From Erwinia piriflorinigrans CFBP 5888 (lineage in GTDB: Bacteria; Pseudomonadota; Gammaproteobacteria; Enterobacterales; Enterobacteriaceae), in NCBI RefSeq assembly GCF_001050515.1, contig NZ_CAHS01000011.1, positions 62,001 to 126,000 on the forward strand: a DNA stretch of 64,000 nucleotides. The letters run 5' to 3'. This document shows, in pieces, positions 38,263-58,910 of this stretch. The notes beneath the pieces are model-generated. The model was not told the DNA's origin and did no database searches. It saw only the letters and a list, made by a program, of their open reading frames with translations. The position numbers and the translations under genes are program-made. The first letter of the stretch is position 1, and the number at the start of each line of letters is the position of its first letter.

Positions 38263-40824
38263 TCAAACCAGCGACTTGAGACGATAGATCCACTCCAGCG
38301 CCTGGCGAGGAGACAGAGAATCAGGATCTAACGCTTCAAGAGCCTCGACTGCTGGCGATGTCTCCTCAACCAGCAGCGGCAGCTGGGAGCCATCGGCCCT
38401 GGTGCTGGCTGCACTCCCGGAGAGGGCTTCTAACTCTTTCAGTTTCTGACGGGCCCGTTTGATAACGTCTTTGGGTACTCCGGCCAGCGCAGCGACGGCC
38501 AGGCCGTAACTCTTACTGGCGGCACCTTCCTGCACGCTGTGCATAAAGGCGATGGTATCGCCATGCTCGACAGCATCCAGATGCACGTTAGCCACGCCTT
38601 CGATTTGCTCCGGCAGGGTGGTGAGTTCGAAATAATGAGTGGCAAACAGCGTCATGGCTTTGATGCGGTTGGCAAGGCTTTCGGCGCAGGCCCAGGCCAG
38701 CGACAGACCATCATAGGTTGAGGTACCACGGCCTATTTCGTCCATCAGCACCAGGCTGTACTCAGTGGCATTATGCAGAATATTGGCGGTTTCGGTCATT
38801 TCTACCATAAAGGTTGAACGGCCAGAGGCGAGATCGTCCGCCGCACCTACGCGGGTGAAAATCCGATCGATTGGGCCGATAACCGCCTGCTCAGCGGGAA
38901 CGAAGCTGCCAATATAAGCCATCAGGGTAATCAGAGCGGCCTGACGCATATAGGTACTTTTACCGCCCATATTAGGACCGGTGACCACCAGCATACGGCG
39001 TTGCGGCGACAAAGTAAGAGGATTTGCGATAAACGGATCTTTTAACACCTGCTCAACCACAGGATGACGGCCACCGCTGAGTTTTATACCGGGTTTATCG
39101 CTCAGCGTCGGACAGCTGTAGTTAAGCGTCCAGGCACGTTCAGCAAGATTAGTTAAAACGTCCAACTCTGCCAGGGCTGCGGCACTGTCCTGTAATGCTG
39201 CCAAATGAGGTAGCAACATATCAAACAGCTGTTCATATAGCGCCTTTTCCAAAGAAAGTGCTTTGCCTTTAGAAGTCAGTACCTTGTCTTCATACTCTTT
39301 CAGCTCGGGAATAATGTAGCGCTCTGCGTTTTTCAGCGTCTGACGGCGTACGTAGTGGATGGGTACCAGGTGGCTCTGACCCCGGCTGACCTGAATGTAG
39401 TAGCCGTGAACACCATTAAAGCCAACTTTTAGCGTATCCAGCCCCAGCTTTTCCCGTTCGCGGATCTCCAGGCGGTCAAGATAGTCAGTGGCCCCATCGG
39501 CCAGCGCCCGCCATTCATCCAGCTCCTGGTTATAGCCGGGGGCGATCACCCCTCCGTCACGAACCAGCACCGGCGGCGTTTCTATAATGGCGCGCTCCAG
39601 CAGCTCGCGTAGCTCGGTAAATTCCCCCATCTGACTACGCAAAGTCTGTAGGTGCGCGTTATCACTGTCGGCCAGCTCTTCATTCAGCAGCGGCAGCTGC
39701 TGGAAGGCATGGCGCATGCGTGCCAGATCGCGAGGCCGTGCAGTGCGCAGCGCAAGACGAGCCAGGATACGCTCGAGATCGCCGACCTGGCGCAGCAGCG
39801 GGGGCAGGTTGTCATTCAAATCCTGTAGCGCCCGGATACTTTGCTGGCGCAGGGTGATGACCTGCGTATTACGCAACGGCATATGCAGCCAGCGCTTGAG
39901 CATACGGCTGCCCATCGGCGTCACGGTTTTATCCAGCACTGACGCCAGGGTATTGTCACTGCCTCCGGCGAGATTCTGTGTAATTTCAAGATTACGGCGG
40001 GTTGCGGCATCCATAATAATACCGTCCTGCTGGCGTTCCATAGTCAGCGAACGGATATGTGGTAACGAGGTGCGCTGCGTATCTTTAACGTACTGTAGCA
40101 GACAGCCAGCGGCACGCAGGGCATGATGCGCTTGCTCCACGCCGAAACCACTAAGATCGCGCGTGCCAAATTGCATATTCAGCTGCTGGCGAGCGGTATC
40201 CAGTTCATATTCCCACAGCGCTCGGCGGCGCAGACCACGGCGGTTCTCAATCAGCATCATGGCGGCAAATTCTTCCGGGTAGAGCAGCTCGGCCGGATTG
40301 GTGCGTTGCAGTTCGGCAGCCATTGTTTCTTGATCGGTGGGTTCAGCCAGGCGGAAGCGTCCAGAGCTGATATCCAGCGTGGCATAGCCAAAGCCGCGCG
40401 GGCTCTGCCAGATTGCCGCCAGCAAATTATCCTGGCGTTCATTCAATAATGCTTCATCACTGATCGTGCCGGGAGTGACGATGCGTACGACTTTGCGCTC
40501 GACCGGGCCTTTGCTCAACGCCGGGTCACCAATCTGTTCGCAGATAGCCACCGACTCACCCAGCTGTACCAGTTTTGCCAGGTAGTTCTCCACCGCATGA
40601 TAGGGTACGCCCGCCATGGGAATAGGCTCTCCTGCTGAGGAGCCGCGTTTGGTTAAGGAGATTTCCAGCAGCTGCGAGGCGCGTTTGGCATCGTCATAAA
40701 ACAGCTCGTAGAAGTCCCCCATGCGGTAAAACAGCAGTATCTCCGGATGCTCCGATTTGAGGCGCAGGTACTGCTGCATCATTGGGGTATGCGAATTTAG
40801 GCTCTTATTGTCAATGACAGACAT
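38263..40824 (-). CDS. mutS: DNA mismatch repair protein MutS
   Basis: This 853-residue ATPase recognises mismatches and starts methyl-directed repair with MutL. The mismatch-binding Phe-X-Glu is in [11 protein letters not shown] near residue 36. Connector, lever and clamp domains follow, then the ATPase with Walker [15 protein letters not shown] near 612 and Walker [19 protein letters not shown] near 692. The length equals E. coli MutS. It is convergent to rpoS and marks the end of the conserved core before the accessory region. Confidence 0.97.
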
Positions 40825-41568: not shown

Positions 41569-41970
41569 TCAGCTGGTTCCGTTCTGGAAAAGGTCCCACC
41601 GGTTACCGTAGAGATCCTCAAACACCACGACGATTCCGTACTCTTCCTCACGCGGTTCTTCACAGAAATGCACGCCTTTTTCCTTCATGGCCGTATAATC
41701 GCGCCAGAAGTCGTCCGTCTGCAGGAACAGGAAAACGCGGCCTCCGGCCTGATCGCCGATGAATCCGGTCTGACGCTCATTAGAAGCCAGGGCAAGCAGC
41801 AGATTACAGTCACTGCCGGGCGCAGGGGTAACTACAACCCAGCGCTTGCAGGGCTGGGGCGTATCTTCCACGAGGGTAAATCCGAGTTTGTCAGTGTAAT
41901 AACTGATAGCTCTGTCATAATCATCCACTACCACCGCCACGTAACCGAGACATCTTTTCTGTGCACGCAT
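41569..41970 (-). CDS. VOC family protein (glyoxalase/bleomycin-resistance fold)
   Basis: This 133-residue protein has the two beta-alpha-beta-beta-beta repeats of the vicinal-oxygen-chelate fold. CLGYVAVVVDDYDRAISYYTDKLGF opens the first (residues 6-30), and GVHFCEEPREEEYG with FEDLYGNRWDLFQ near 115-128 ends the second. The glutamate and aspartate of the last strand are typical, but a usual N-terminal metal histidine is replaced, so it may not bind metal in the standard way. I chose the ATG with AAGGAG seven bases upstream; a start 13 codons earlier has no ribosome-binding site. Possible roles are small-molecule isomerisation or resistance; the substrate is unknown. Confidence 0.82.
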   Translation of the reverse strand: MRAQKRCLGYVAVVVDDYDRAISYYTDKLGFTLVEDTPQPCKRWVVVTPAPGSDCNLLLALASNERQTGFIGDQAGGRVFLFLQTDDFWRDYTAMKEKGVHFCEEPREEEYGIVVVFEDLYGNRWDLFQNGTS

Positions 41971-42558
41971 CGCTTTCTCCTTATTAAGCCCTCCAATGGT
42001 ATATAGCAAAAACGTTTATCACCATATATATAAATCCTTAAAAAAATAGATAGACAGATAAATGTTATTTTTAGATTTATGTCACAGTATTAATCCGTAA
42101 AAAGTAATCGCCTGTAAAAAGCTATCGTTCGAGTCATAATCCCACGTAAAGCACTGCCAATATAAAAAATGCCAGCATAAAAACTAGCAGGCTAATAGCC
42201 ACTCAACACAATAAAGATTAATATCATAAATCACGTCATCTTGGTAAAAAAAAGAAAAATATTGATTTTTAATAAAAAAGTAAACCACCACCCAAACCTC
42301 TCTCATAAATTTAACTTATATTTATCATTTTTATATGTTATATATCAATGCATTAAAAAAATTAGTTACAATATGTTTATATTTGAAATACATTGAAACA
42401 TCCATTGCGTTGATTTACATTGCGCGGGGGTTATATAAAAAAGAAGACGCACGGAACGCAAGTGAAGTTTAATTTAACATGCCATATCCTGCCGAGTATC
42501 AAGAGGTAGTCAGCGCAAGTACCTGATAAAATGTTATTTCGTATTTTAAGGATAATTT
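41971..42558. other. AT-rich control region upstream of the six-gene operon
   Basis: This 588-bp stretch is strongly AT-rich with several T and A tracts and no supported gene. It separates the leftward VOC gene from the rightward operon. The A-tract spacing would suit binding by H-NS-like silencers, which is inference from composition. A candidate promoter lies at its right end. Confidence 0.5.
42410..42437 (+). promoter_or_regulatory. Candidate promoter of the six-gene operon
   Basis: A TTGATT -35-like element (42410-42415) and TATATA -10-like element (42432-42437) are 16 bp apart. The leader to the first start codon would be about 115 nt. In such AT-rich DNA matches of this quality are common, so confidence is modest. 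Confidence 0.4.
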
Positions 42559-43314
42559 ATGCAAGAAACATTACGGTCATGTCCTGCAACACAGGAAGTT
42601 AAAAAGCGCTTTGTCACACTTAATAACTACCTGAATGATGAAAAAAATTTTTTTGATGAGTCATCCCGGTTCCTTGAATTTATACGAGACGAAAAGCTAC
42701 TACCTGCCATCATTTTTGAAGTTCTGAATGACAATGAGTACCTTAATGAAGTTTCCTCAAATTCTTACAAGCATGTTAATCACTTCTCTAAAATCGTCCT
42801 GATTAATGATGAAAATCAGGATAACTGCAGGCTTACGCTGCATATATGGAAACCGCCATTTACCGAAAGCGAAATAAGTCAGGAACTCATTCATGACCAT
42901 CGGTTCAGTTTTTCATCCTATGTCCTCTGCGGTGAACAGGTCCATGAAATTGTTCAGGAGTCCAAAGATAAATCGATCACAAAGGTCAGGTTTCAGAAAT
43001 ATAAATACCTCCCTTCTAATACAGGAAATATTCATGACTGTTTTTTTGAAGAAGACGTATATCTCGATGAGATTGCAGAAAAAAAAGTAAGCCGCGGTCA
43101 GGTATATACCATGCACAATGAAGAAATTCACCGCATTGTGTTTCCTGAAGGTGATGAACCTATCATTTCATTTCTTGTAAGAGGGCCGAGGAAAAGAAAC
43201 TACACCCACACGTATAACACTTTTTACCCCCGGGAAGGAATGGTATCAAACGTTCCGATGTATACCCCAAATGAATTGCGTGAATTGTTAGTATATACTC
43301 TGGATAAAATTTAA
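42559..43314 (+). CDS. Cupin-like protein, first gene of the six-gene operon
   Basis: I do not recognise a named family. The 251-residue protein has a cupin-like pattern from about residue 90: LTLHIWKPPF, then ELIHDHRFSFSSYVLCGE near 113-130, where HDH and a following glutamate could bind metal, and later YTMHNEEIHRIVF near 188, giving another histidine. This is the arrangement of metal-dependent small-molecule dioxygenases or isomerases of the cupin superfamily. The N-terminal 90 residues are mostly helical. An AAGGA site lies seven bases before the ATG. Ten bases separate it from the next gene, so it probably acts in the same pathway as the CYTH, kinase-like and phosphatase proteins downstream. 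Confidence 0.6.
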   Translation: MQETLRSCPATQEVKKRFVTLNNYLNDEKNFFDESSRFLEFIRDEKLLPAIIFEVLNDNEYLNEVSSNSYKHVNHFSKIVLINDENQDNCRLTLHIWKPPFTESEISQELIHDHRFSFSSYVLCGEQVHEIVQESKDKSITKVRFQKYKYLPSNTGNIHDCFFEEDVYLDEIAEKKVSRGQVYTMHNEEIHRIVFPEGDEPIISFLVRGPRKRNYTHTYNTFYPREGMVSNVPMYTPNELRELLVYTLDKI

Positions 43315-43323
43315 GGAGAAATA

Positions 43324-44151
43324 ATGAGTCTTATTGTTGATATCGAAGGTTCAATTCATGAAAAGCACGGCGAATATAATATCTTTCGTCAACTCGCAGT
43401 AAAAGTATTTGCAGATCATATTGATGATGCACAGTACTATAAATGGCTTGATGAAGTTCCCCATGAACTGAAAAGCCGGTTTCCTTCGGTTGAATTCAAA
43501 GAGCGCGACTGGGTAAGGGCCTCTCCTCCTCTGAATACAGCCATATATTATGATACTCCCGAATACGACATTCTCCCCACTGGCGCATTGCTTAGAACCT
43601 CCTGCAGCAAACTTACCCATGCCTTCTGTGCCTTCAAGATGCCTGAAGATGCGACCGGTAACCGGCTGGACAGGCGTCATGTATTTGAGGGAGAGGAAAA
43701 AGCGACGATTCAGAATGACCCCAGCGGTAACGCTGCAGTGAGCATCGTTAAAAAACTTATCACCCGCAGCGATGCTGATCAGCCCGGCACCTTCCTCAAG
43801 CTTGCAACAGGGATTTCGCCAGATAACCTGAGCCCTGCGCTGGTACTGAAGGGACACCGCACCACATTTTATGTGCTCATAGACGGCCATGACGTCCTCA
43901 GGTGTTCCATCGACCGTTCTTCCGTTTTTGATTTCCGCTCGGGCAAGGATGCTGACGATCTTGCTAACTGGAAAAGTTTCCGTGAGGTCGAGCTATCGCT
44001 TTATCCGCGGATTTTGGACGAAATCAAAGGCGACCCCCGGGTTGTTGAAGTGATAGAAGCCCTTCGCGACTCCCTGATTAAACGCTTTGATACGCACGTT
44101 ATTTATGACATCAAATACCAGCGTGGCAAGAAGCTGTTAGGGAAATACTGA
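43324..44151 (+). CDS. CYTH/VTC-fold protein (triphosphate tunnel type)
   Basis: This 275-residue protein resembles the CYTH superfamily, whose members bind triphosphates in a tunnel of antiparallel strands (thiamine triphosphatase, class IV adenylyl cyclase, polyphosphate polymerase). Seen are YYDTPEYDILPTGALLRTS near residues 78-96, the strand pair AFCAFKMP and RRHVFEGEEK near 105-125, LKGHRTTFYVLIDGHDVLRCSIDRSSVF near 180-205 and FREVELSLYP near 224, the last matching the acidic strand of CYTH proteins. The usual N-terminal ExExK is only loosely present (VDIEGSIHEK). Strong AAGGAG site. A triphosphate or nucleotide substrate is inferred. Confidence 0.6.
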   Translation: MSLIVDIEGSIHEKHGEYNIFRQLAVKVFADHIDDAQYYKWLDEVPHELKSRFPSVEFKERDWVRASPPLNTAIYYDTPEYDILPTGALLRTSCSKLTHAFCAFKMPEDATGNRLDRRHVFEGEEKATIQNDPSGNAAVSIVKKLITRSDADQPGTFLKLATGISPDNLSPALVLKGHRTTFYVLIDGHDVLRCSIDRSSVFDFRSGKDADDLANWKSFREVELSLYPRILDEIKGDPRVVEVIEALRDSLIKRFDTHVIYDIKYQRGKKLLGKY

Positions 44152-44161
44152 AAATTTATTT

Positions 44162-45289
44162 GTGGGGTATCACGTGCTTCCAGCAATATTTATTACAGCC
44201 ATTTTGGCAGTCATGAATGGGGCAAAATATCAGTCCCTGAGTAATTATTTACACCTGACGTATGGTTATCACACGCGTGAAGTTGCTTTTATTTTTTCCC
44301 TGTCTAATCTATGTGGACTTGCTTTTGGCCTGATGATGCTTTCATTTCCATCGGTCAGGGAGAAACTGTTTAGGCTGCATGTGATAGTTTTAATATTCCA
44401 GGTGACGGCTTTTGTAATAAGCTATTTTTATCGCGATATTTACGTGGCAATGCTGTTACAGCGCGTACTCGAAGGATTCGTCTTTGCCTATATAATGAAT
44501 TTCTATCCGGTTGCATTAACCCGCTATGCCCGTCAGGATAAAACTGAACTTGTCATGTGTATGTGGGGGCTGGTGTACGCATTGGGGTTTGCTTTTTCAA
44601 ACGGAATCGCCGCGTGTGATATTCCGGATTCGTTCGCATTTAATATGCCATCGCTGATGCTCTTCGCATGCCTGCTTATCGTTAACAGGAAAATAATGCA
44701 ATCCGTGAAAGTTAATAATTCTGCCGCCGGGAATGCCAGGAAACCACAGATTGTAATTCTGGGTAAAATTGGGCTTATCGCCATTCCATTCTTTCTTTTT
44801 ACCTTTGTGTATAACAACTTTCTTTTTTCTTATTCTCTTGCAAACCCTAAAAGTAATCCTCTTTACTGGATGATGATGGTTAATGGTGCGGGCATAATCC
44901 TTTCAAATATTTTGGTTTCATCCGGCAGAATAAACGCCACATTTTATTTTGCCTTACTTATCGTCGTGCTCTGGCTACAAACCATCTTCTCTTCTACAAG
45001 TGGGCTGACTGCCGCTGCAGGGATAATCCTCGTACTGGGCCTAATTGAAGGGGTTGTATTTGGTTTCTTTATCCGTCATTTCGCATCCGAAGAGTTTGAT
45101 CTTGTTAAAGCTGGTTACTTGGTTTCAGGAAGCCTGGGCGCAACACTCGGGCCACTCCTGCCGCTGCACTTCGGTACTGCTTCGTTGCCGGTTACTGCGC
45201 TGTTCCTGGCATCAGTCATCTGCCTGCTGGTTCTGAACGGAAGCCGTAACAGGACCTCACGGCTGAGCAAGGGAGAAAAACATGTCTGA
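44162..45289 (+). CDS. MFS transporter of the six-gene operon
   Basis: This 375-residue protein has about 11-12 hydrophobic segments spread through the length, the pattern of a major-facilitator transporter. The first half has LAFGLMMLSFPSVREKLFRL near residue 58-77, the typical loop between helices 2 and 3. It most likely exports the operon product or imports its precursor. The start is uncertain: GTG at 44162, or GTG at 44174 preceded by GTGGGG. The stop overlaps the next gene by eight bases, showing tight coupling. Confidence 0.75.
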   Translation: MGYHVLPAIFITAILAVMNGAKYQSLSNYLHLTYGYHTREVAFIFSLSNLCGLAFGLMMLSFPSVREKLFRLHVIVLIFQVTAFVISYFYRDIYVAMLLQRVLEGFVFAYIMNFYPVALTRYARQDKTELVMCMWGLVYALGFAFSNGIAACDIPDSFAFNMPSLMLFACLLIVNRKIMQSVKVNNSAAGNARKPQIVILGKIGLIAIPFFLFTFVYNNFLFSYSLANPKSNPLYWMMMVNGAGIILSNILVSSGRINATFYFALLIVVLWLQTIFSSTSGLTAAAGIILVLGLIEGVVFGFFIRHFASEEFDLVKAGYLVSGSLGATLGPLLPLHFGTASLPVTALFLASVICLLVLNGSRNRTSRLSKGEKHV

Positions 45290-45965
45290 CCGTGCACTGA
45301 TGTTCTTAAAACCTGAGTTCACGCCTGAAGATCGCGCACGGTATTTTCCGGTTATCCGGCACTATCTTGATGCATACGGCCTGTCCATCGAGGCCGATTG
45401 TGAGGTGCTCGCGCACGATGAAAAGGAGGCCCTCTTTGATCGTGTTTACTCCAAGCTCCTGAAAAATGCACGCCAGCCACTGTCAGGAAAGGTTATCGGT
45501 GGATATGCCTACCTGAAAACAGCCTCCGGTGCAGACGAAGAGCAACTGTTTCATGAATGGATCTCCCCGCAGAATCCTGCGTTGCGGACCGGTGAAGATA
45601 ATTACTACCTGCAGAAGGATGACCTCCGTGTAGTTAATCCCTTTTGCCCCTATCAGAGACGCCTTTTTATCGAAAGCCAAGGCTCTGCGCACCTCTTTAT
45701 CATTAGCAGAAATGGTGCTCGGCCGTGGGCGGAGATTAAACCCCTGTTTCAGGGGGCGCCGACGCAGACTGGTGGCCAGGGCAGTGGGATCCGTTCACAC
45801 CTCAGTCAGTGCCGCTGGTATACCCCAACCACAAATGGCCTGCACCTGTCAGCATCAGATCATGATGCCCTCTGGGAAACCAATGAAGTAATGGAATTTT
45901 TCATGGAGAGAAGGCGAAATAAACATGAAGAAAGAACTCATTCTTATCCGGCACGGACATTCTGA
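45282..45965 (+). CDS. Nucleoside-diphosphate-kinase-like protein
   Basis: This 227-residue protein begins MSDRALMFLKPEFTPED, like the first strand and active-site lysine of nucleoside diphosphate kinases. Near residues 168-195 it has SGIRSHLSQCRWYTPTTNGLH and SASDHDALWETNEVMEFF, which fit the NDK pattern (G-x-R-x-x-L, N-x-x-H-x-S, then the acidic helix). The histidine that is phosphorylated in NDKs is kept. It is longer than a true NDK (about 140-150 residues) because of a central insertion around residues 60-140. It is probably a phosphotransferase acting on a special substrate. AGGGAG precedes its ATG. Confidence 0.6.
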   Translation: MSDRALMFLKPEFTPEDRARYFPVIRHYLDAYGLSIEADCEVLAHDEKEALFDRVYSKLLKNARQPLSGKVIGGYAYLKTASGADEEQLFHEWISPQNPALRTGEDNYYLQKDDLRVVNPFCPYQRRLFIESQGSAHLFIISRNGARPWAEIKPLFQGAPTQTGGQGSGIRSHLSQCRWYTPTTNGLHLSASDHDALWETNEVMEFFMERRRNKHEERTHSYPARTF

Positions 45966-46476
45966 ATGGCAGGCCGGCACAACCCGCGACAGAAACAGCC
46001 ACCTGACCGGGAAGGGTTTTACGGAAGCGGGAAAACTCTACAACACGCTTGCAGCCTATACCGACGTAGCAGATTTTCATTTAATAAGCAGCCCGCTCCA
46101 CAGGGCAGTTGAAACCAGCAGACTGGCTTTACCTCCTTGCCTGTTCAGCTCCGTTTCTTTTGACAGAAACTTCAGGGAGGCTTCCTTCCATGTCCGTGGT
46201 TGTCTGAACCTGCCGGAAGACTTTTATCCGGTAGCAAACGGAAAAGTGTGCAGTGAATATCTGGATTTCAAGGCCGGAATTAAGTCAGCGCTCAGTACTA
46301 TTCTCGCCGCTCACAACCGCGTAATGATATTCACCCATGGTGGTGTAATTAAAACCATTCTGCGCCTCCACTGCGGCTCAGATTCATTTTGCACTCAGAT
46401 AGATAACTGTTCAGTCACACATTTCGTAAAAAAAGAAGACGTGTGGCTTCTTAAGAGGGTAAATCAACGATGCTGA
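45925..46476 (+). CDS. Histidine phosphatase family protein (phosphoglycerate-mutase fold)
   Basis: This 183-residue enzyme has the catalytic core LILIRHGHSEW at residues 5-15, where the histidine takes the phosphate. SSPLHRAVETSRLA near 55 provides the conserved arginine, REASFH near 83 the acid, and MIFTHGGVIKTIL near 132 the second histidine. All residues for phosphatase activity are kept. It starts 41 bases inside the upstream kinase-like gene, in another frame, an unusually long overlap. In the operon it probably removes a phosphate from an intermediate, perhaps as the last step before export. Confidence 0.85.
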   Translation: MKKELILIRHGHSEWQAGTTRDRNSHLTGKGFTEAGKLYNTLAAYTDVADFHLISSPLHRAVETSRLALPPCLFSSVSFDRNFREASFHVRGCLNLPEDFYPVANGKVCSEYLDFKAGIKSALSTILAAHNRVMIFTHGGVIKTILRLHCGSDSFCTQIDNCSVTHFVKKEDVWLLKRVNQRC

Positions 46477-47195
46477 GTCATGAAACGCTTTATCTTAACG
46501 CAGTCGTCATCCTCTGCGCGCTGTGTCAGTCCGTTGTGGGAGTAGGACTTATCATGATAGGCCTCCCGACGCTTATCCTGAGCGGATACCCATTTGATCA
46601 TGCGCTTTCGATCTGTCTGCCCGGCTCGCTTATCATCAACGTATTCCAGGTCTTTGTTGAACGTAGCAACTACCGGCGAGCAGATCTTGTGTCTTATACA
46701 AGCATTTCTGTCATTTACACTGCTTTTCTTTTTTATCTGAACTTGGTCATCGGCCTCAGCTTTAGCAAACTGACCGCAGGAATAATACTGATTCTTACCG
46801 GGATGGTGGGTTTTATGCCGGCACTCAGAGAACGCTTTCTGAGAACGCTCAATATTAAACCCGGTGTTACCAATATAGCTATCGGCGTGATCCATTCCGT
46901 ATCCAGCCTTGGAGGCTCACTGCTGTCACTGACGGGAACTGCCAGATATGCCGAAAGTTCAGAGGCCAGGCGATTTATTTCCGGTGGATATCTGTCACTG
47001 GGAGCCATCCAGCTTGCCTTTTATTCCACTCACGGCGTGAGCATTACGCCCGTCATCTATTCACTAATCGCAGTCCCCGCTTATTTTATTTCTCGCATAC
47101 TGGTTACGCCTTACGTTAACCATCAAAAGTTAAAAACGTTCATTTTCATCCTGATTCTTATTTACGGTGTATTGTTAATTAAACAGTCAATGTGA
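46470..47195 (+). CDS. TauE/SafE-type membrane protein
   Basis: This 241-residue inner-membrane protein has about seven to eight hydrophobic helices and the repeated small-residue pattern of the TauE/SafE (DUF81) family, for example GLIMIGLPTLILSG near residue 26 and GVIHSVSSLGGSLLSLTGTA near 132. Members export sulfite or sulfonated organic acids, or are of unknown specificity. It overlaps the phosphatase gene by seven bases and ends the operon, giving the cluster a second transporter. Substrate cannot be read from the sequence. Confidence 0.75.
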   Translation: MLSHETLYLNAVVILCALCQSVVGVGLIMIGLPTLILSGYPFDHALSICLPGSLIINVFQVFVERSNYRRADLVSYTSISVIYTAFLFYLNLVIGLSFSKLTAGIILILTGMVGFMPALRERFLRTLNIKPGVTNIAIGVIHSVSSLGGSLLSLTGTARYAESSEARRFISGGYLSLGAIQLAFYSTHGVSITPVIYSLIAVPAYFISRILVTPYVNHQKLKTFIFILILIYGVLLIKQSM

Positions 47196-47927: not shown

Positions 47928-48302
47928 TCAAAGAAAACTATTGTCATCGTCCTTGTCATCAGGGGATGAAATCCACTTCATCATCATGCTGTTGACCATC
48001 ATGTTCACCCCTAACATCTGAGAGGTATTTTTGTCGAGCGTATCTTTAGTATAATCCCGAAAATTCGGGTCGCCTCGCAGCGTGGTATCAGTGTAAAGCA
48101 GGGCCTTATTTAGTTGTTGTAATGAATAAGCATTATCAGGATCGAGGGACTTGAGCTTAGTGATAAGATCATTGAGTGTTCCTTCCGGTCTATTCTCACG
48201 AATAAACTGTAGAACGCGATTGTCGAAATTTAATTCACTCGTCTCATCAAGGTTTTTTAGTTTATGTTCGTAAGCCGTCATATGTGTATTAACTTTGCTC
48301 AT
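47928..48302 (-). CDS. Unknown protein at the orgC position of the type III secretion island
   Basis: This 124-residue, soluble and highly charged protein starts MSKVNTHMTAYEHKLKNLDE and ends in an acidic tail SSPDDKDDDNSFL. The middle resembles a helical bundle (VLQFIRENRPEGTLNDLI, ALLYTDTTLRGDPNFRDY). It lies 22 bases after the SctL gene, as the last gene of the leftward operon, the place of orgC in Salmonella SPI-1; I see no clear similarity to OrgC. It could be a small regulator of needle assembly, an export chaperone or an effector. Function unknown. Confidence 0.6.
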   Translation of the reverse strand: MSKVNTHMTAYEHKLKNLDETSELNFDNRVLQFIRENRPEGTLNDLITKLKSLDPDNAYSLQQLNKALLYTDTTLRGDPNFRDYTKDTLDKNTSQMLGVNMMVNSMMMKWISSPDDKDDDNSFL

Positions 48303-48324
48303 TTACTGCTCCTTAGATCAATAT

Positions 48325-48975
48325 TTATTTTATACGTGGGTCTTTTTTTCTTAACTCCGTCAGCTGTACGGCAATATCATCCAGTAAATCTGGTATTAGA
48401 TCCCCAATTTCATGGTTAAGTGTAACCATTTCTGCCTCGGCTTCAGACAGCCATTGTCGACACAGAGAATCACTGGGAAAGCGTATCGAGTCTACACCAT
48501 TCTGTACGGTTATATGGTTTTCTTCACAGAACAGATAATGAGAAATATCAGTATTCTCTTGCAGATGAACTGATTCAGGTATGATGATCTTTAATGGTTT
48601 CTGGTGACCACATTTCTCCTGTAGATGATGAATTATTCGCTCAACAATAACCGTGTCGTGTAGCGACGACTTGAGCGCATTGTACAAATTTTCATTAAGT
48701 GATTGCATCCGGGATTCTTGGATCTTCTCATAGTTATCGAGCATCGTCACCAATTGAGAAAAGAAAAGTTTGAATCCTGTGGCGAAGCCCTCTTTTTTGC
48801 AGTGCTCTATGAGTTCAGCAGTATGTAACTCATATTCGGCATAAATTTCGCTACAACGATTGAATGTTTTCTCAAGGGCAATTGCCATACTACGGTGGCG
48901 ATTGCGCTCCCTGGATTTTATCAAGATATGTTTATGAGAATCTTTGGGTAATTCATCACTGATAATTTTTCGCAT
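48325..48975 (-). CDS. Type III secretion stator protein SctL (OrgB/MxiN-like)
   Basis: This 216-residue cytosolic protein is in the place and has the character of SctL, which holds the ATPase SctN to the sorting platform. The first 120 residues are charged and helical (HILIKSRERNRHRSMAIALE, then coiled-coil), and the C-terminal part has the strand-helix pattern of the FliH/SctL tail (PLKIIIPESVHLQENTDISHY, VDSIRFPSDSLCRQWL). The start lies 20 bases inside the SctK gene. The call rests mostly on order; the family diverges fast. Confidence 0.75.
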   Translation of the reverse strand: MRKIISDELPKDSHKHILIKSRERNRHRSMAIALEKTFNRCSEIYAEYELHTAELIEHCKKEGFATGFKLFFSQLVTMLDNYEKIQESRMQSLNENLYNALKSSLHDTVIVERIIHHLQEKCGHQKPLKIIIPESVHLQENTDISHYLFCEENHITVQNGVDSIRFPSDSLCRQWLSEAEAEMVTLNHEIGDLIPDLLDDIAVQLTELRKKDPRIK

Positions 48976-49510
48976 AAGTGGCTGCTATTCTGAGTAAATT
49001 AATATGATTAGGTGCAACTGCAGCATTGATTTTGGGCAAATTAATATCGGAAGGAAGGCTTAACAGAATACGCTGTTTAATCGCTGGGGGGAGAACCGAT
49101 GCCAAACTGAGTATGAAGGCGGCTCCCCAGGCAAGTGTATCAACTCCTTGCTCCGCATTATCGAGGGCAACATGGTGAATAAGTGGAAGAGAGATAAATG
49201 CGAGAAGCTGCGGATCGGCCATTAGTGTCGCTCCGTGGTCTGGTAACCTGTTACGTAATAAGTAACCACCAAGCAGATGAGCCACGCGAGGCAACTGATA
49301 CCAATGTGCGACTACCAGCGAAGATATGATGTCAGATGGCTCCCAGTTTTTATCCACATTTTCAAGTTGAAAATGTGTCAGTATCCAGTAATTTACCAGC
49401 ACATCATTAAACATGTCACCCGACGCTATGCCGTCGGGTAAATGACTGTGGTCGGTATAGCATGAGGGGGCATACAGGATCCTCATGACCCGCTCGGCGT
49501 CATGCTTCAT
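48956..49510 (-). CDS. Type III secretion sorting-platform protein SctK (OrgA/MxiK-like)
   Basis: This 184-residue protein contains RLPDHGATLMADPQLLAFISLPL near residues 88-108, the conserved centre of OrgA/MxiK proteins, which link the cytosolic ring SctQ to the inner-membrane ring. Salmonella OrgA is of similar length (199). The start overlaps the end of the SctJ gene by 11 bases and the end overlaps the SctL gene by 20, so all are translated together. Confidence 0.85.
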   Translation of the reverse strand: MKHDAERVMRILYAPSCYTDHSHLPDGIASGDMFNDVLVNYWILTHFQLENVDKNWEPSDIISSLVVAHWYQLPRVAHLLGGYLLRNRLPDHGATLMADPQLLAFISLPLIHHVALDNAEQGVDTLAWGAAFILSLASVLPPAIKQRILLSLPSDINLPKINAAVAPNHINLLRIAATYAKNYQ

Positions 49511-50267
49511 TTATCACTTCTTCTTTTTGGCAGGGAGTCGAGTTATGTTTAACAGGACGACGACTGGCCTGGTAAAATAAATATCCTCCTGTCGCTATTG
49601 CACAGAAAGTCATCACCGTCAGCAGAATTAGCCATTTATCGACACTACTGACCGGGGCCTTTACCGGTGATGAGTACTGAATCATCGGGGCCGGGAATAG
49701 CACAACAGATATATTTTCATAAAATACATCATCTAAACTGTTTTTTATGAGTGATTTAATTTGGGGTATAAACATAGCTTCATCGATTTCTCCTTTATAT
49801 GAAATCAGCACAGCAACATGACCGCTGTGCTTTTTTACGCTGATGTCACTGTTGTAAGACGGATAGCTTAAATGCACACGAGCATTCACCACCTGAGCAA
49901 TGATCCTCAGTGATTGTTCCAGCCTTTGCTCCTGTAATGAAAGTACCCTGGCCTGTTCTGCATTCGGTGAAGCAACCAAAGAACTACTGGGGAATGCTTG
50001 ACCGATTTGAACATCCGCCGCCCACGGCAGCTGATACTGATTGATAACGGAAAGTGCAGCCGTATTTTCGGACTGCCCGACGGTTACCGCATAGCCTGCT
50101 TTCAAGTTGCCACTTTTATGTGCGGAAATATTATGCTGCTGCAATATGGCTACGACATGATTAGCTTGCTCTTGAGAAAGGTTTTCAAGCAGCTTTTCGT
50201 TATTACAGCCAGAGATCAGGCTTACTGTCAGTAAAATGATAATGACCCGGAAATGATATTTTCTCAT
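49500..50267 (-). CDS. Type III secretion inner-membrane ring lipoprotein SctJ (PrgK-like)
   Basis: This 255-residue lipoprotein has a signal ending in the lipobox LISGC near residue 21. The YscJ/FliF ring-building domains follow (LSQEQANHVVAILQQHNISAHK near 30-50, and ARVHLSYPSY near 128). A C-terminal transmembrane helix lies near 215-232 (WLILLTVMTFCAIATGGYLF). It forms the inner ring of the basal body with SctD. Length matches PrgK (252). Confidence 0.92.
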   Translation of the reverse strand: MRKYHFRVIIILLTVSLISGCNNEKLLENLSQEQANHVVAILQQHNISAHKSGNLKAGYAVTVGQSENTAALSVINQYQLPWAADVQIGQAFPSSSLVASPNAEQARVLSLQEQRLEQSLRIIAQVVNARVHLSYPSYNSDISVKKHSGHVAVLISYKGEIDEAMFIPQIKSLIKNSLDDVFYENISVVLFPAPMIQYSSPVKAPVSSVDKWLILLTVMTFCAIATGGYLFYQASRRPVKHNSTPCQKEEVINEA

Positions 50268-50590
50268 TATTGAGACTTTACCAACGTTTCGATTGTACTG
50301 ACTCCTTTTCGTGCCAGCGTACTGATAAGGGATACATAATTAGTATATTCACCAATATAATATTGTAACATTAACAGCTTATTAGGATCGCTGGTAAATT
50401 CAGGCGACTGGTGCAATGTATTGATCACATTCTTAAACTCCAGATTGGTTTCACTAATTTCATTGAACTTGCTGGATACAAGGTTATTAAAGTTTTGATC
50501 TTGCAGAGTAACCGAAAAAGTGTCATCAGGTACAGTGTTGTCCGATGATAATTTTATTAATTTTGGTAAAGCTTCTATAGCCTGGCTCAT
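50267..50590 (-). CDS. Type III secretion inner rod protein SctI (PrgJ-like)
   Basis: This 107-residue protein makes the inner rod or adaptor that anchors the needle. The C-terminal part, IGEYTNYVSLISTLARKGVSTIETLVKS near 78-106, matches the conserved PrgJ/MxiI tail (YNLYVSMVSTLTRKGVxxxETL). It lies between the needle and SctJ genes as in SPI-1, and its stop overlaps the SctJ start by one base. Confidence 0.9.
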   Translation of the reverse strand: MSQAIEALPKLIKLSSDNTVPDDTFSVTLQDQNFNNLVSSKFNEISETNLEFKNVINTLHQSPEFTSDPNKLLMLQYYIGEYTNYVSLISTLARKGVSTIETLVKSQ

Positions 50591-50640
50591 GGATAAATAA
50601 TCTCTGGATGAGAAAGGGTACGGAATTCCGTACCCTGAAA

Positions 50641-50910
50641 TTAGCGGAAGTTTTGGATAATAGCAGCGCCAATATCCTTGTAGGCTTTTACCGTGCTGGT
50701 TTGAGCGTTTCGGAACAGCGTGTACTCTTGTAATTTTGCCTGATACCTCGCCAATACTGCTGGGTTTGAAGGATCTTTTTCAAGAGCCTCTTCAGCCTTA
50801 TTGAGTTCTGTCATCATATCTTTAGCGCCAGCTTCAAACCCCTCGGAAACCTCATCTAAGAAGTAACCATTACCTTTTGCAGCAGGACTTTCAGTTTCAA
50901 AAAAAGCCAT
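50641..50910 (-). CDS. Type III secretion needle protein SctF (PrgI-like)
   Basis: This 89-residue needle subunit is secreted and polymerises outside the outer membrane. The C-terminal region ARYQAKLQEYTLFRNAQTST and AAIIQNFR closely follows PrgI (YQSKLSEYNLYRNAQSNT, AAIIQNFR), with the central SNPAV turn between two helices. I start at the ATG giving MAFFETESPAAKG. The ATG lies just after the SctD stop. Confidence 0.95.
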   Translation of the reverse strand: MAFFETESPAAKGNGYFLDEVSEGFEAGAKDMMTELNKAEEALEKDPSNPAVLARYQAKLQEYTLFRNAQTSTVKAYKDIGAAIIQNFR

Positions 50911-50912
50911 AA

Positions 50913-52196
50913 TCAAAAATTCCCATGATTGAGTGGAAAATACCAGTGGCGTGGGTTCATAAAGAGGTAGCCGTTAGAAGAGTCCAGATAAGACTTATCT
51001 TTTAACCAATTTTCATCAAGATTGATTGAAAAACTAATTATACTGTTACCCCATTTATGATTGAATTCGTTAATCAGATGTTTCAGACTGCTAAGTGTGC
51101 TATCGCTGAGTGCATCACGGACAATTAGACCGTAGCCGGTAGCGGTGGTGGTCTGTCGATAAGGGATATGCAGTCGCTCAAGTCCCTGGCGTGCATCCTG
51201 AAGTAATTGTTTCTTAGTCCTGGTTTTCACACCGACGTCAAGTGCAAAGGGGATATACTGCAATACTGCATTTTTCAAACTTGCTTCTTCGAGTTTGCTT
51301 AGCTGGCGATATACGCTAAGCAATGGATTTTGCGGTTTGCTGTAGTCAATCTGAATGACCGGATGACCTGAATGCTGCAACCGGGCCACAACAGTCAACC
51401 TCTGTTCTTTAAGCCAAACAGGGATGACGTCAGGCTTTGTCTTCAGCTTGAAGAGGGCTTCTTTAGCCCACTCCATCTCCTGAAAATTATGTGCCAGGAC
51501 ATAAATATCCTGTTTATCCCGAGCTTTAACAATATAGAGAGGAGAGGGTGCCCCGGCGAGTGATTCGCTCAGAGTGAGTACGCGTTGCTGTGACTCAAAT
51601 TTGCTAAACCAAATCAACGATGCTGATGCCAGCAGAGTAGCCATTAAAAAAATTGCCGAAATTATGGTGCGAATTTTCCTTTTTTTAAGCAAAACAGCCG
51701 ACTTTCTTTCATTCAGCACAATATTTGAAGCCGTGGGTTGATTGAAATTTTTAATCTCATCTGACCATATCTCGTCACTACGCTTCAGGGCGAAGCGGAT
51801 GGGCCCAATCGTAACTACTTGATTTTCTGCTATCATCGAGTCATAACTTCCTGATGCATCGCTCACTTCAATATGAAAACGACGCGATTCGTCGCTATCA
51901 GAAGTTCCCGAGAGGTATAAGGTGATGTTGGGAGATGCAGAATCGCTTGGAATATAAAGTGTGTTAATCGAGTAGTGGGCTGCATGATGGTGGGAGGATT
52001 CTAGGGGGATGGTTTTATCCTGGAGCGAGAGTGCCGGATTGATTAAAAGGAAATAGTCGTCAGCAGTCAGATGTAGTTCGCAGCCATACATGGGGCCAAA
52101 CAGTATTTTCAGTGAGTAATTAGGCTGTATTTTATCTGGCATAAAAGTATCCGGCATTTCTTCAGGCATGGTATTCATAAAAGTGGCCACCGGCAT
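50913..52196 (-). CDS. Type III secretion inner-membrane ring protein SctD (PrgH-like)
   Basis: This protein of up to 427 residues forms the outer part of the inner-membrane ring. It has a cytosolic forkhead-associated-like N-domain (about 25-165), one transmembrane helix near 175-197 (ISAIFLMATLLASASLIWF), and periplasmic ring domains; the end DENWLKDKSYLDSSNGYLF and RHWYFPL matches the PrgH C-terminus. It is longer than PrgH (392), partly through the N-terminus, where the true start is uncertain: ATG at 52178 with GGTGG upstream is an alternative. It is the first gene of the leftward operon. Confidence 0.88.
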   Translation of the reverse strand: MPVATFMNTMPEEMPDTFMPDKIQPNYSLKILFGPMYGCELHLTADDYFLLINPALSLQDKTIPLESSHHHAAHYSINTLYIPSDSASPNITLYLSGTSDSDESRRFHIEVSDASGSYDSMIAENQVVTIGPIRFALKRSDEIWSDEIKNFNQPTASNIVLNERKSAVLLKKRKIRTIISAIFLMATLLASASLIWFSKFESQQRVLTLSESLAGAPSPLYIVKARDKQDIYVLAHNFQEMEWAKEALFKLKTKPDVIPVWLKEQRLTVVARLQHSGHPVIQIDYSKPQNPLLSVYRQLSKLEEASLKNAVLQYIPFALDVGVKTRTKKQLLQDARQGLERLHIPYRQTTTATGYGLIVRDALSDSTLSSLKHLINEFNHKWGNSIISFSINLDENWLKDKSYLDSSNGYLFMNPRHWYFPLNHGNF

Positions 52197-52630
52197 ATAT
52201 AAGCAGGATATTTGGTTTAACCAAGATACGACTGCGATTTATCATGTCAGGCATCGGTATCTATTAATAATGCATAAAATATATTAAGGTATTCTGGTTA
52301 AATAAACGTATATCCGCACCTCTTTACGAACGCATACCTATTTACATTTAAGTTAATACTTCTTCATTTTAACTTTGATCCAAAGTCAGGTTCCCTCTCT
52401 CTTAGGAAATTATATATTATTAAAGTTCCGTAAGAACCAAAAATATATTATATATTTGTTATATTTTTATTGGTTGAATATTTTCTTGACCTTGTGTTTT
52501 TTTCTGAGAGAATGCATCTATGTTTTTATTAAAAGATGCTTTTCCCAGATATATTTGCTGTTCTAATATAAAAGCTTATGCGTTTCTGACCTGATTTATC
52601 TTTACTCACAGGCGTTGGTGTGAATTTATC
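52197..52630. promoter_or_regulatory. Divergent control region between the two arms of the secretion island
   Basis: This 434-bp very AT-rich interval separates the leftward SctD operon from the rightward invF-like operon and should hold both promoters. A 63-codon hydrophobic frame at 52375-52566 has no ribosome-binding site and low-complexity AT-driven composition, so I do not call it a gene. No hilA-like gene is present, unlike SPI-1. Confidence 0.55.
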
Positions 52631-53509
52631 ATGAATTTGACATTAGAAAATATGATAGAGCACTACAAAGCAAGCCTGAATGTCAATGTTGATAAGCTTA
52701 TCAGGAAAAATATAATTGTTGCTAATAATACTCTTGAGGTAAGCAACAGCCTGATATTTGCAAATCCTGTCGAAAAGGATGCGGTGCTGGAACTTCAGGT
52801 AAATGACACTAATATTTGTGGTCTGCCTGTATTAAAGCAATCTGCGCTGATCGCATCAATAAAAGAGACCAAGTTAGATGTTGATGGGGGATGGAGTATT
52901 GAGGTGTTACCTATCCCAAAGGTGGCTATTCTTTTGTCCTTTATAGATTATCATTTTAAAAGTATTGCTAATTTAATAAAGAAAAGGAGTGTGAAAGAGT
53001 ATGGTCCAGCTGTATTTGAAAACAGCATCCTGCATATATCGCTGACTGAAGGTGGTCATGATGGGTTCATGAGAATTCTTACCGATGCAGTATTAAATAG
53101 GCAAGAAAATAATTTGGTGCGTATCGCTCCATTTATACGTAATCTTGAAAGCTATTGGCTAGCGTACTTTTTATTATCTCAAGCAATGGGTAAAGGGCAA
53201 AAAAACAATAACCTTAACATTTATAACGCGTGTAAGACATATGGCGTGTCTGAATCTCAGTTCAGGAATCTTTGCCATGATGTTTTTTCTCGCGGCCCTA
53301 AAAAACAACTTTGTCTGTGGCGCGCTGCGCGCAGTGCTTTACAGTTAATAGATAATAATAAGTCGGTTGCTGTTATCGCCCATATGAACGGCTATGCCTC
53401 TTCATCTCATTTTGCAAGTGAACTCAAATCACTTTTTGGTATAACCCCACGGGAATTTAAAAAAATTGAAAGTTTTCTTAATGAAGATACAGGCCGTAAG
53501 AAAAATTAG
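52631..53509 (+). CDS. AraC-family activator of the secretion island (InvF/MxiE-like)
   Basis: This 292-residue protein has a C-terminal AraC/XylS DNA-binding domain: YNACKTYGVSESQFRNLC near 198-215 is the first helix-turn-helix and VIAHMNGYASSSHFASELK near 254-272 the second, followed by FGITPREFKK. In SPI-1-class systems InvF/MxiE turns on effector genes together with a chaperone of the translocators. It is larger than InvF (216-249), with an N-terminal domain of about 190 residues without recognised similarity. The end overlaps the secretin gene. Confidence 0.85.
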   Translation: MNLTLENMIEHYKASLNVNVDKLIRKNIIVANNTLEVSNSLIFANPVEKDAVLELQVNDTNICGLPVLKQSALIASIKETKLDVDGGWSIEVLPIPKVAILLSFIDYHFKSIANLIKKRSVKEYGPAVFENSILHISLTEGGHDGFMRILTDAVLNRQENNLVRIAPFIRNLESYWLAYFLLSQAMGKGQKNNNLNIYNACKTYGVSESQFRNLCHDVFSRGPKKQLCLWRAARSALQLIDNNKSVAVIAHMNGYASSSHFASELKSLFGITPREFKKIESFLNEDTGRKKN

Positions 53510-55244: not shown

Positions 55245-55258
55245 GAACTTAGATTACA

Positions 55259-56374: not shown

Positions 56375-56415
56375 AGGCAGATGATGCCATTAGAGTTCAT
56401 TCGTTTAATGTGTAA

Positions 56416-58497: not shown

Positions 58498-58894
58498 CTT
58501 GGTCGAGTTAGTGTCAAATATGCTTGAAGATGCGGGGATTTCAGGGGTTATGGAGCAGGGTTTGAGTAACCACTCAACGATTACTCTGAATATGAAAGAT
58601 GAGATCCCCTCTATTTACATAAAAAATGAAAACGACGAAGTATGGGTGTGGGCGAAAATTTGTGAATACAATCTTTCAGCATTAAGTTACTGCAGCATTA
58701 ACCTGTTTCCCGTGATGCTAAATTATAATGAAGATGTCTTCTATACTGGTCAGCCTTGCTTATATCCGGTTGATGGTGATCTTGAGTTGCGAGCGCAAAT
58801 AAGAGAAAAACACCTGGAGTCAGCAGATACCTTTCTAATGGTGCTGGATCATTTCCTGACTCTCCTTCAAGAATATCGCGCGGTTCTCGCCTGA
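58487..58894 (+). CDS. Type III secretion class IB chaperone (InvB/SpaK-like)
   Basis: This 135-residue small acidic protein has the alpha-beta-beta-beta-alpha-beta-beta-alpha pattern of secretion chaperones. NHSTITLNM near 27 and VWVWAKICEY near 53 match InvB (SHSTIVLDL, VWIWAQ). I chose ATG 58487, which gives exactly the InvB length; an ATG four codons earlier is possible. It overlaps the SctV stop by 11 bases and precedes the ATPase gene by 16, as in SPI-1. It should bind effectors encoded elsewhere. Confidence 0.88.
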   Translation: MKYDLVELVSNMLEDAGISGVMEQGLSNHSTITLNMKDEIPSIYIKNENDEVWVWAKICEYNLSALSYCSINLFPVMLNYNEDVFYTGQPCLYPVDGDLELRAQIREKHLESADTFLMVLDHFLTLLQEYRAVLA

Positions 58895-58910
58895 TTAAGG
58901 AGCTTATTCA

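What the first reader, a model, noticed from the sequence alone, without database searches (positions are those of the whole stretch)
42559..47195. Six-gene operon that combines a cupin, CYTH-fold protein, NDK-like protein, histidine phosphatase and two transporters
Seen: six + strand genes with gaps of ten bases or overlaps, each with recognisable folds or motifs (cupin HDH; CYTH strands ending FREVELSLYP; NDK-like NGLH with SAS; phosphatase RHG; MFS and TauE/SafE membrane proteins). Known: CYTH proteins bind triphosphates, NDKs transfer phosphate, histidine phosphatases remove it, MFS and TauE-type proteins move small molecules out. Inference: the cluster makes a phosphorylated or nucleotide-linked small molecule, keeps it phosphorylated inside, and exports it after dephosphorylation, like self-protection in antibiotic or toxin pathways. 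It has no biosynthetic hallmark genes of known classes (no PKS, NRPS, lanthipeptide or phosphonate mutase). I know of no named system with this set.
Basis: partly seen in the sequence, partly recalled or inferred. Interest (0 to 1): 0.87.

Follow-up and report, generated by a model that had tools for sequence, protein, structure and literature searches.

The report
Operon with nucleocidin-fluorination gene relatives
A small mobile six-gene operon in an Erwinia-family bacterium appears to carry relatives of three enzymes that a soil Streptomyces needs to put fluorine onto the antibiotic nucleocidin, so it probably makes a modified nucleoside and may offer a way into one of nature's unsolved fluorine chemistries.

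Summary
The operon is real: six tightly packed + strand genes (42559-47195) plus a divergent VOC gene (41569-41970), an AT-rich cassette between mutS and a type III secretion island; a sibling genome lacks it there. The same seven genes in the same order occur in three other Erwiniaceae loci, two on plasmids. Part of the set has a precedent: cupin, TTM and phosphatase correspond in fold, and the cupin in active-site residues, to Streptomyces calvus orf(-3), orf2 and orf3, each essential for fluorination of nucleocidin, activities unknown (PMC10946740). Kinship is strong but indirect: the Orf sequences were not retrieved. Relatives occur from Rickettsia to Myxococcus, in the readable distant clusters beside nucleotide-acting genes. 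Best reading: a mobile nucleotide-natural-product operon that oxidises the ribose of a nucleoside triphosphate, adjusts phosphates and exports the product. Whether it installs fluorine is open (about 0.25). New variant of a known kind; my literature searches listed no report of this module outside nucleocidin producers.

The parts
41569..41970 (-). VOC (glyoxalase/bleomycin-resistance fold) protein, divergent from the operon; candidate self-protection or accessory protein
   Evidence: Same gene in same divergent place in L001, L002, L005 (82-89% identity); only weak, below-cut-off matches to VOC models, best methylmalonyl-CoA epimerase TIGR03081 1.7e-7; a 43% match in the Pseudaestuariivita cluster L008
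41971..42558 (.). AT-rich divergent intergenic region, probable promoter(s); a conserved GTTATATAAA block and a TAAGGAT ribosome-binding-like block
   Evidence: Alignment of 4 loci, mean column identity 66%; promoter role is inference
42559..43314 (+). 3-His cupin with thiol-dioxygenase fold; counterpart of nucleocidin Orf(-3)
   Evidence: Fold; Y70, W97, H112, H114, H191 invariant in 23 of 23 chosen sequences, same Y-27-W-15-H-2-H spacing as published for Orf(-3) Tyr73/Trp100/His115/His117
43324..44151 (+). Triphosphate-tunnel protein, VTC-like; counterpart of nucleocidin Orf2
   Evidence: PF09359 20.9 bits, below cut-off 23; 46% identical to a Streptomyces calvus protein P0108
44162..45289 (+). 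MFS-type transporter, GTG start; putative exporter
   Evidence: 26% identical to a Hahella cluster protein that scores 110 bits to MFS_1; no match in L003, L006, L019
45282..45965 (+). NDK-like protein with N-x2-H-x-S-x8-E motif (N185, H188, S190, E199)
   Evidence: Residues invariant in 6 of 6; stretch aligns weakly with the NDK active-site segment of PDB chains (E 0.21 and up); NDK fold on a low-confidence model; Hahella homologue hits PF00334 at E 0.0094, below cut-off
45925..46476 (+). Histidine phosphatase, branch 1; counterpart of nucleocidin Orf3
   Evidence: PF00300 75.7 bits; R9, H10, R60, E85, H138 invariant in 8 of 8
46470..47195 (+). TauE/SafE-like membrane protein; putative anion or product exporter
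   Evidence: 32% identical to a Hahella cluster protein that hits PF01925; 79-90% in L001, L002, L005

Best explanation
A mobile operon for a nucleotide-derived natural product. Its catalytic core corresponds to the module that Streptomyces calvus needs to fluorinate nucleocidin: a mononuclear-metal 3-His cupin, a triphosphate-tunnel protein and a histidine phosphatase, here joined by an NDK-like phosphotransferase. Proposed working: a nucleoside triphosphate, most likely ATP, is gripped by its triphosphate in the TTM tunnel; the cupin, with iron and oxygen, oxidises the ribose (4' position by analogy), leaving a site that a nucleophile fills (fluoride in nucleocidin; fluoride, water or another group here); the NDK-like protein and the phosphatase set the phosphorylation state of the product; MFS and TauE-like proteins export it; the VOC protein may protect the producer. 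Shown here: gene content, folds (TTM only by a weak profile match), conserved active-site residues, co-inheritance, mobility, correspondence with the nucleocidin set. Inferred: substrate, metal, chemistry, order of steps, product, transporter and VOC roles.
For: Deleting orf(-3), orf2 or orf3 in S. calvus (in S. virens orf(-3), and orf2+orf3 together) abolishes fluorometabolites while defluoro products remain; Orf(-3) is predicted to have a thiol-dioxygenase fold with Tyr73, Trp100, His115, His117, His200, Orf2 a TTM fold, Orf3 is a histidine phosphatase (PMC10946740). The window cupin has that fold and those five residues, invariant in 23 of 23 sequences that I chose from proteobacteria, actinobacteria and others; 156 of 185 listed cupins keep the exact Y-W-H spacing, 10 differ by one, 19 lacked my simple motif; two named Streptomyces members (P0241, P0243) have exactly Y73, W100, H115, H117. 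The window TTM is 46% identical to an S. calvus protein; 64% mean column identity over 18 chosen sequences. 43 of 120 listed TTM hits share their exact longest-contig length with a listed cupin hit, against 0-3 in ten offset controls. Neighbours in other clusters act on nucleotides: an ApaH-type protein (L009; above the PRK00166 cut-off, below TIGR00668) and NrdJ above cut-off (L008), HisG, PurC-like and NUDIX (L010), a kinase annotated as deoxynucleoside kinase (L002). On a 6.9 kb contig of a 1.1 Mb genome (G049) cupin, TTM, NDK-like and phosphatase are the only genes of the operon left.
Against: Orf(-3), Orf2 and Orf3 sequences were not retrieved: P0108 is taken as Orf2 because it is an S. 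calvus member of this TTM family, Orf(-3) is tied by fold and residue numbers, Orf3 by family only. In the TTM tree S. calvus and the window fall in two deep groups joined by a long branch, so chemistry may have diverged. No NDK-like gene was seen in the one readable cluster of the S. calvus group (L010), where the phosphatase also lies about 6 kb from the TTM. Physical linkage of the pair in Streptomyces or Kitasatospora was not shown by my calls. HisG and HisF of L010 score as ordinary histidine-biosynthesis enzymes. No sulfamylation genes in the cassette. Knockout results on other genes of the nucleocidin cluster differ between groups. No product, substrate or expression data. The NDK-like model is weak.
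Confidence: 0.62

Rival explanations
1. The same scaffold does organosulfur chemistry: the thiol-dioxygenase-like cupin oxidises a small thiol and the TauE/SafE-like protein exports the resulting sulfinate/sulfonate, with the phosphate enzymes serving a phosphorylated or nucleotide-bound carrier.
For: Best structural matches of the cupin are mercaptosuccinate, 3-mercaptopropionate and cysteine dioxygenases; the Hahella relative of the last gene hits the family named sulfite exporter TauE/SafE.
Against: Deleting the Streptomyces counterpart stops fluorination, not sulfamylation; no TauE match in L003, L006, L007, L008, L010 and L019, so it is not core; other conserved partners belong to nucleotide- or triphosphate-binding families.
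Confidence: 0.12
2. A signalling or stress system that makes and removes an unusual nucleotide or polyphosphate, not a secreted product.
For: TTM, NDK, ApaH, CYTH and phosphatase families act on polyphosphates, nucleotides or phosphate esters (families; activities recalled).
Against: Sporadic presence: TTM in 4 of 295 family, 1 of 369 class and 3 of 394 order genomes, plasmid carriage, transporters in the operon and low GC resemble an antibiotic cluster more than a core signal; the counterpart's role in nucleocidin is biosynthetic.
Confidence: 0.1
3. A nucleotide-based anti-phage defence unit.
For: Island setting, mobility, nucleotide-acting proteins.
Against: No PADLOC match for 8 proteins except a Cas4d hit at E 0.019 that looks spurious; no recognisable sensor or effector; transporters present. 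The TTM has no relative in 50,697 phage records or in viral contigs, which speaks little either way.
Confidence: 0.04

Closest known systems
Nucleocidin fluorination genes orf(-3), orf2, orf3 of Streptomyces calvus / S. virens (PMC10946740)
   Same: Same three folds or families; cupin active-site residues and spacing; a TTM of the window's family occurs in S. calvus (46% identity)
   Different: Here one operon with an NDK-like protein and two transporters plus a VOC gene; no sulfamylation genes in the cassette; Gram-negative, mobile; fluorine not demonstrated; Orf sequences not compared
Pentostatin-type purine nucleoside clusters (pen, ada, mac, cof; review PMC12648386, section 2.1 read)
   Same: One relative cluster (L010) carries HisG and a divergent SAICAR-synthetase-like gene, as PenA/PenC, near the cupin-TTM pair
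   Different: The window operon has none of these; L010's HisG and HisF pass the ordinary HisG/HisF cut-offs; no comparison with PenA/PenC themselves
Pantoea antibiotic clusters (PNP-1 to PNP-5, pantocins, dapdiamide and others; PMC11350110)
   Same: Low GC, plasmid or island location, small operons in Erwiniaceae
   Different: PNP-2, also six genes, holds a predicted ferredoxin reductase that this operon lacks. [quoted passage not shown]
VTC / CYTH triphosphate-tunnel enzymes and nucleoside diphosphate kinases
   Same: Family resemblance or fold, and key active-site residues of the NDK-like protein
   Different: Both window proteins miss the Pfam cut-offs; distinct subfamilies

Membership tests
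Nucleocidin-type fluorination module | 3-His thiol-dioxygenase-fold cupin with Tyr73/Trp100/His115/His117/His200 pattern | tested here: met
   Fold; residues invariant in 23 of 23 chosen sequences; spacing in 156 of 185 listed. Orf(-3) sequence itself not compared
Nucleocidin-type fluorination module | TTM-fold partner of the same family as in S. calvus | tested here: met
   P0108 of S. calvus 46% identical; that P0108 is Orf2 is inference
Nucleocidin-type fluorination module | Histidine phosphatase in the same cluster | tested here: met
   PF00300 75.7 bits; also matched in L001, L002, L003 and L005-L010, in L010 about 6 kb away from the TTM. Orf3 sequence not compared
Nucleocidin-type fluorination module | Required for making a C-F bond | not testable with these tools
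   Needs 19F NMR / LC-MS on cultures or enzymes
Nucleocidin biosynthetic gene cluster | Sulfamylation sub-cluster (nucG, I, J, K, L, N, O, P, Q) | tested here: not met
   The seven genes of cassette 41569-47195 are accounted for and none is of that kind; flanks are mutS (by my reading) and a T3SS. The rest of the genome was not searched for them
Vtc polyphosphate polymerase (PF09359) | Score above Pfam gathering cut-off | tested here: not met
   20.9 vs 23 bits; 2 of 18 family members hit it at E<=0.5
Nucleoside diphosphate kinase (PF00334) | NDK fold | tested here: met
   50 of 50 listed Foldseek matches, on a low-confidence model (pLDDT 63.7)
Nucleoside diphosphate kinase (PF00334) | Pfam score above cut-off | tested here: not met
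   No hit for the window protein; 16.3 vs 27 bits for the Hahella homologue
Thiol/cysteine dioxygenase | Fold | tested here: met
Thiol/cysteine dioxygenase | Recognisable by family sequence model | tested here: not met
   0 Pfam and 0 NCBIfam families at E<=1
Known anti-phage defence systems (PADLOC) | Match to a defence model | tested here: not met
   No credible match for 8 proteins at E<=0.1; one Cas4d hit at 0.019

The most novel reading that the evidence does not exclude
Organofluorine biosynthesis is not confined to a few actinomycetes: Erwiniaceae, other proteobacteria and insect symbionts carry a small mobile operon that makes 4'-fluorinated nucleosides by the nucleocidin route, with the cupin-TTM pair as a second natural fluorination enzyme system unrelated to the SAM-dependent fluorinase.
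Probability: 0.25. Interest if true: 0.95.

Novelty: new variant of a known kind. Interest (0 to 1): 0.8.

Why it matters
How nucleocidin acquires fluorine at C4' was unsolved in the papers I saw (2023); three essential genes are known but their activities are not. This finding shows that a cupin-TTM-phosphatase set recurs across phyla, with an NDK-like protein added in proteobacteria, apart from sulfamylation genes and carried in enterobacteria not far from E. coli. That points to which proteins work together, suggests a nucleoside triphosphate substrate, and gives alternative proteins for reconstitution. If fluorine is involved, natural fluorination is far more widespread than thought; if not, the family may show the reaction from which fluorination arose. 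Either answer is informative.

Tried and rejected
Anti-phage defence: no credible PADLOC match. Phage-borne: the TTM has none in phage records or viral contigs. E. coli: no DNA match. Fluoride riboswitch as a sign of fluoride handling: none in window 37-56 kb at E<=1 or, at gathering score, in seven loci (L001, L002, L005, L007-L010; L006 was left out for the size limit); this neither supports nor excludes fluorination. A Na/H-exchanger gene beside the alphaproteobacterial clusters L007 and L008 (Pfam-tested in L007 only) could fit fluoride stress, since such antiporters are often riboswitch-linked (passages of PMC11139923), but may be unrelated. Canonical polyphosphate polymerase: below cut-off; no PF09359 match elsewhere in the own genome. 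Distant cupins: of 7 phylum hits, 5 scored 28 to 77 bits; I fetched two of these five (L035, L036) and found no credible TTM beside them, so I treat them as outgroups. S. calvus Orf(-3) was not named among the 120 listed of 261 hits of the last protein search. Neighbourhoods in Streptomyces, Kitasatospora and Myxococcus could not be read with the tools; adjacency is suggested by locus-tag numbers only for Myxococcus (MFMH1_72220/72230) and Rickettsia (LN563_00635/00630), and by equal contig lengths for Photorhabdus, Providencia and Rickettsia, not for Streptomyces or Kitasatospora. Known Pantoea clusters: judged from the abstract, introduction, section 3.9 and passages of PMC11350110, not by sequence. 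PMC5411499 (the ada cluster) is not held. Passages of PMC11592144 and PMC12159101 gave nothing used. PDB sequence searches found no credible relative of the TTM, cupin or phosphatase.
Full report
Observation. The window holds six + strand genes at 42559-47195 with gaps of 9 and 10 bases and then overlaps. GC in 2-kb steps falls from about 0.50-0.60 over the first 42 kb to 0.39-0.50 here. The cassette lies between mutS (38263-40824, -; named by my reading) and a type III secretion island (PrgH, SctJ, SctC, SctV, SctN, SctR, InvF-like). In the sibling genome whose PrgH is closest (G002, 69%), the rpoS-mutS stretch (87 and 86% DNA identity) and the T3SS stretch (77%) are separated by about 1.6 kb without a match to any of the seven proteins, where the window has about 6.8 kb: an inserted cassette. 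The family is Erwiniaceae by inference: genome G122, listed as same family, has the match at the same coordinates as plasmid CP054213.1. Genus and species are not told.

A conserved cassette of seven genes. VOC plus the six genes occur in the same order on plasmids of Erwiniaceae bacterium PD-1 (Paramixta manurensis; L001) and Pantoea alfalfae (L002), and in Pantoea rodasii (L005), although the cupin of L005 is split by a frame change in that record. dN/dS against L001 and L002 is 0.05-0.15 in the ten comparisons where dS was not saturated (dS 0.8-2.8, so rough); six of sixteen were saturated, among them all four with L019. A kinase gene follows the operon in L001, L002 and L005 (annotated as deoxynucleoside kinase in L002; the L001 copy has no NCBIfam hit at E<=0.01); it is not found in the window.

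Reduced versions. L019 has all four core genes open. In L006 the NDK-like gene has an internal stop; in L003 the TTM gene is split in two annotated ORFs and no NDK-like match is found. That Nvir and Aalb are insect symbionts is recalled.

Distant versions. A scan of species genomes gave six loci with the TTM, among them an alphaproteobacterial MAG (L007), Pseudaestuariivita rosea (L008), Hahella (L009) and an Acidobacteriaceae MAG (L010). L007-L009 read cupin - TTM - phosphatase - NDK-like - ApaH-type metallophosphatase - (TauE - MFS in Hahella) - CYTH protein (the metallophosphatase and CYTH genes were Pfam-tested in Hahella and named by my reading in L007 and L008). The Hahella ApaH-type protein passes the NCBIfam cut-off of PRK00166, symmetrical Ap4A hydrolase, but not that of TIGR00668 apaH. 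L008 also has a B12-dependent ribonucleotide reductase (above cut-off), a VOC match (43%), and transporter, dioxygenase-like and NodU/carbamoyltransferase-like genes (my reading; NodU 175 bits against a cut-off of 1000). L010 has HisG and HisF (both above the ordinary NCBIfam cut-offs), a divergent PurC-like protein (41.5 bits to Pfam SAICAR synthetase, cut-off 20; 29.8 against 189.9 for NCBIfam purC), HAD, NUDIX, and aldo-keto-reductase-like and GMC-oxidoreductase-like genes (the last two by my reading); its phosphatase lies about 6 kb from the TTM. HisG-like plus SAICAR-synthetase-like genes mark pentostatin-type clusters (section 2.1 of PMC12648386), which pair an adenosine-deaminase inhibitor with an adenosine analogue; that would fit an adenosine-type product of the cupin-TTM pair, but this is one MAG contig and a plain his-gene fragment is not excluded.

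Co-occurrence at scale. Of the 120 listed TTM hits (193 in all), 43 share their exact longest-contig length with one of 181 typed cupin entries (listed hits; 303 and 261 in all); ten small offsets of the lengths gave 0-3 coincidences. Members of both families carry record names of Photorhabdus, Providencia, a Rickettsia endosymbiont, Myxococcus, Streptomyces and Kitasatospora; of these, equal contig length was seen for Photorhabdus, Providencia and Rickettsia and near-consecutive locus tags for Myxococcus and Rickettsia. The set is rare everywhere sampled: NDK-like gene in 1 of 37 genus genomes; TTM in 4 of 295 family, 1 of 369 class, 3 of 394 order, 1 of 169 in the family of L008's genome, 1 of 151 in the class of L010's genome, each count including the centre genome itself; cupin in 7 of 398 phylum genomes, of which 5 are weak. 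Samples overlap.

Link to nucleocidin. I read section 5 (part 1 of 2), sections 8 and 9 and passages of PMC10946740. Deleting orf(-3), orf2 or orf3 in S. calvus (and orf(-3), or orf2 and orf3 together, in S. virens) abolished fluorometabolites, with complementation in trans (the orf2 deletion only by vectors with both orf2 and orf3); defluoro, sulfamylated co-metabolites remained. The authors predicted Orf2 to be a triphosphate tunnel metalloenzyme and Orf(-3) a cysteine/thiol-dioxygenase relative with Tyr73, Trp100, His115, His117, His200; Orf3 annotates as a histidine phosphatase; they state that the activities are unknown and that some knockout results on other genes of the cluster differ from earlier reports. 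A later paper of the same group speaks of four genes crucial to fluorination without naming them in the part I saw. The window cupin model has the same fold. Its Y70, W97, H112, H114 have the published spacing, with H191 as third histidine, six residues nearer than in Orf(-3); all five are invariant in 23 of 23 sequences that I chose. Among 185 listed cupins, 156 have the exact spacing, 10 are one off and 19 did not fit my simple motif. An S. calvus protein (P0108) is in the TTM family, 46% identical to the window protein. The phosphatase residues R9, H10, R60, E85, H138 are invariant in 8 of 8 (their catalytic role is recalled). I could not retrieve Orf(-3), Orf2 or Orf3 themselves, so this kinship is strong but indirect.

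Against a simple transfer of function. The TTM tree has two deep groups: one with S. calvus, other actinobacteria, Myxococcus, L010, Halomonas and a Paracoccaceae record; the other with alphaproteobacteria, Rickettsia, Hahella and Enterobacterales (midpoint root, bootstrap not settled). The window is in the second. Its clusters carry an NDK-like protein, which was not found in the only readable cluster of the first group, L010. So the shared part may be activation of the ribose, with a different final group.

NDK-like protein. Identity between the window and distant members is only 22-23%, but K10, N185, H188, S190 and E199 are invariant in 6 of 6, and the stretch aligns with the active-site segment of PDB NDKs (E 0.21 to 1.1, weak). 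All 50 listed structure matches are NDKs, though the model is of modest confidence.

Mechanism proposed. TTM proteins grip triphosphates; a 3-His mononuclear metal site activates oxygen. Together they could oxidise the ribose of a bound NTP at C4', with fluoride or another nucleophile filling the site. Labelling work in PMC10616807 (abstract and part 1 of 4 of the text) reports that the C5'-O bond is kept intact in nucleocidin, which fits modification of an intact nucleotide. The NDK-like protein and phosphatase would then set the phosphorylation state, and MFS/TauE export. All of these steps are inference.

Literature. Searches for nucleocidin with fluorination since 2019 (17 papers, 16 listed), nucleocidin with the genera concerned (ten of 1,303 listed) and nucleocidin/TTM/thiol dioxygenase/fluorinase terms since 2022 (6 papers) listed no report of this module outside nucleocidin producers, judged by titles and abstract starts and the passages cited; subscription papers are mostly not in that library.

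Verdict.

Noticed in passing
window 47928-63196: A type III secretion island of the PrgH/InvF (SPI-1-like) kind directly downstream; 15 of 37 genus genomes have a PrgH match at E<=0.001, several of them weak (22-27% identity), and G000 has a second copy (47%) on contig C14.
   Followed up: partly
L003, L006, L019: Small-genome Pantoea keep parts of this operon, in two cases on very small plasmids or contigs (7.6 kb, 6.9 kb), in different states of decay, which hints at a past or present role in the insect.
   Followed up: partly
P0065/P0162 (Rickettsia endosymbiont of Platyusa sonomae): Cupin and TTM proteins with neighbouring locus tags and equal contig length in an intracellular Rickettsia: an unusual place for a natural-product module.
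   Followed up: no
L010:920-7144: HisG, HisF, PurC-like, HAD and NUDIX genes around a cupin-TTM pair in an Acidobacteriaceae MAG: possible pentostatin/coformycin-type partner pathway outside actinobacteria, or ordinary his genes.
   Followed up: partly
L008:7227-14248: NrdJ ribonucleotide reductase, MFS-like, dioxygenase-like and NodU-like genes beside the module: NrdJ could be a resistant target copy or a biosynthetic step.
   Followed up: no
L007:6802-8728 and L008:399-2378: Divergent Na/H-exchanger-family gene (Pfam-tested in L007 only) and a LuxR-like regulator (my reading) next to the cupin operon in both alphaproteobacteria.
   Followed up: no
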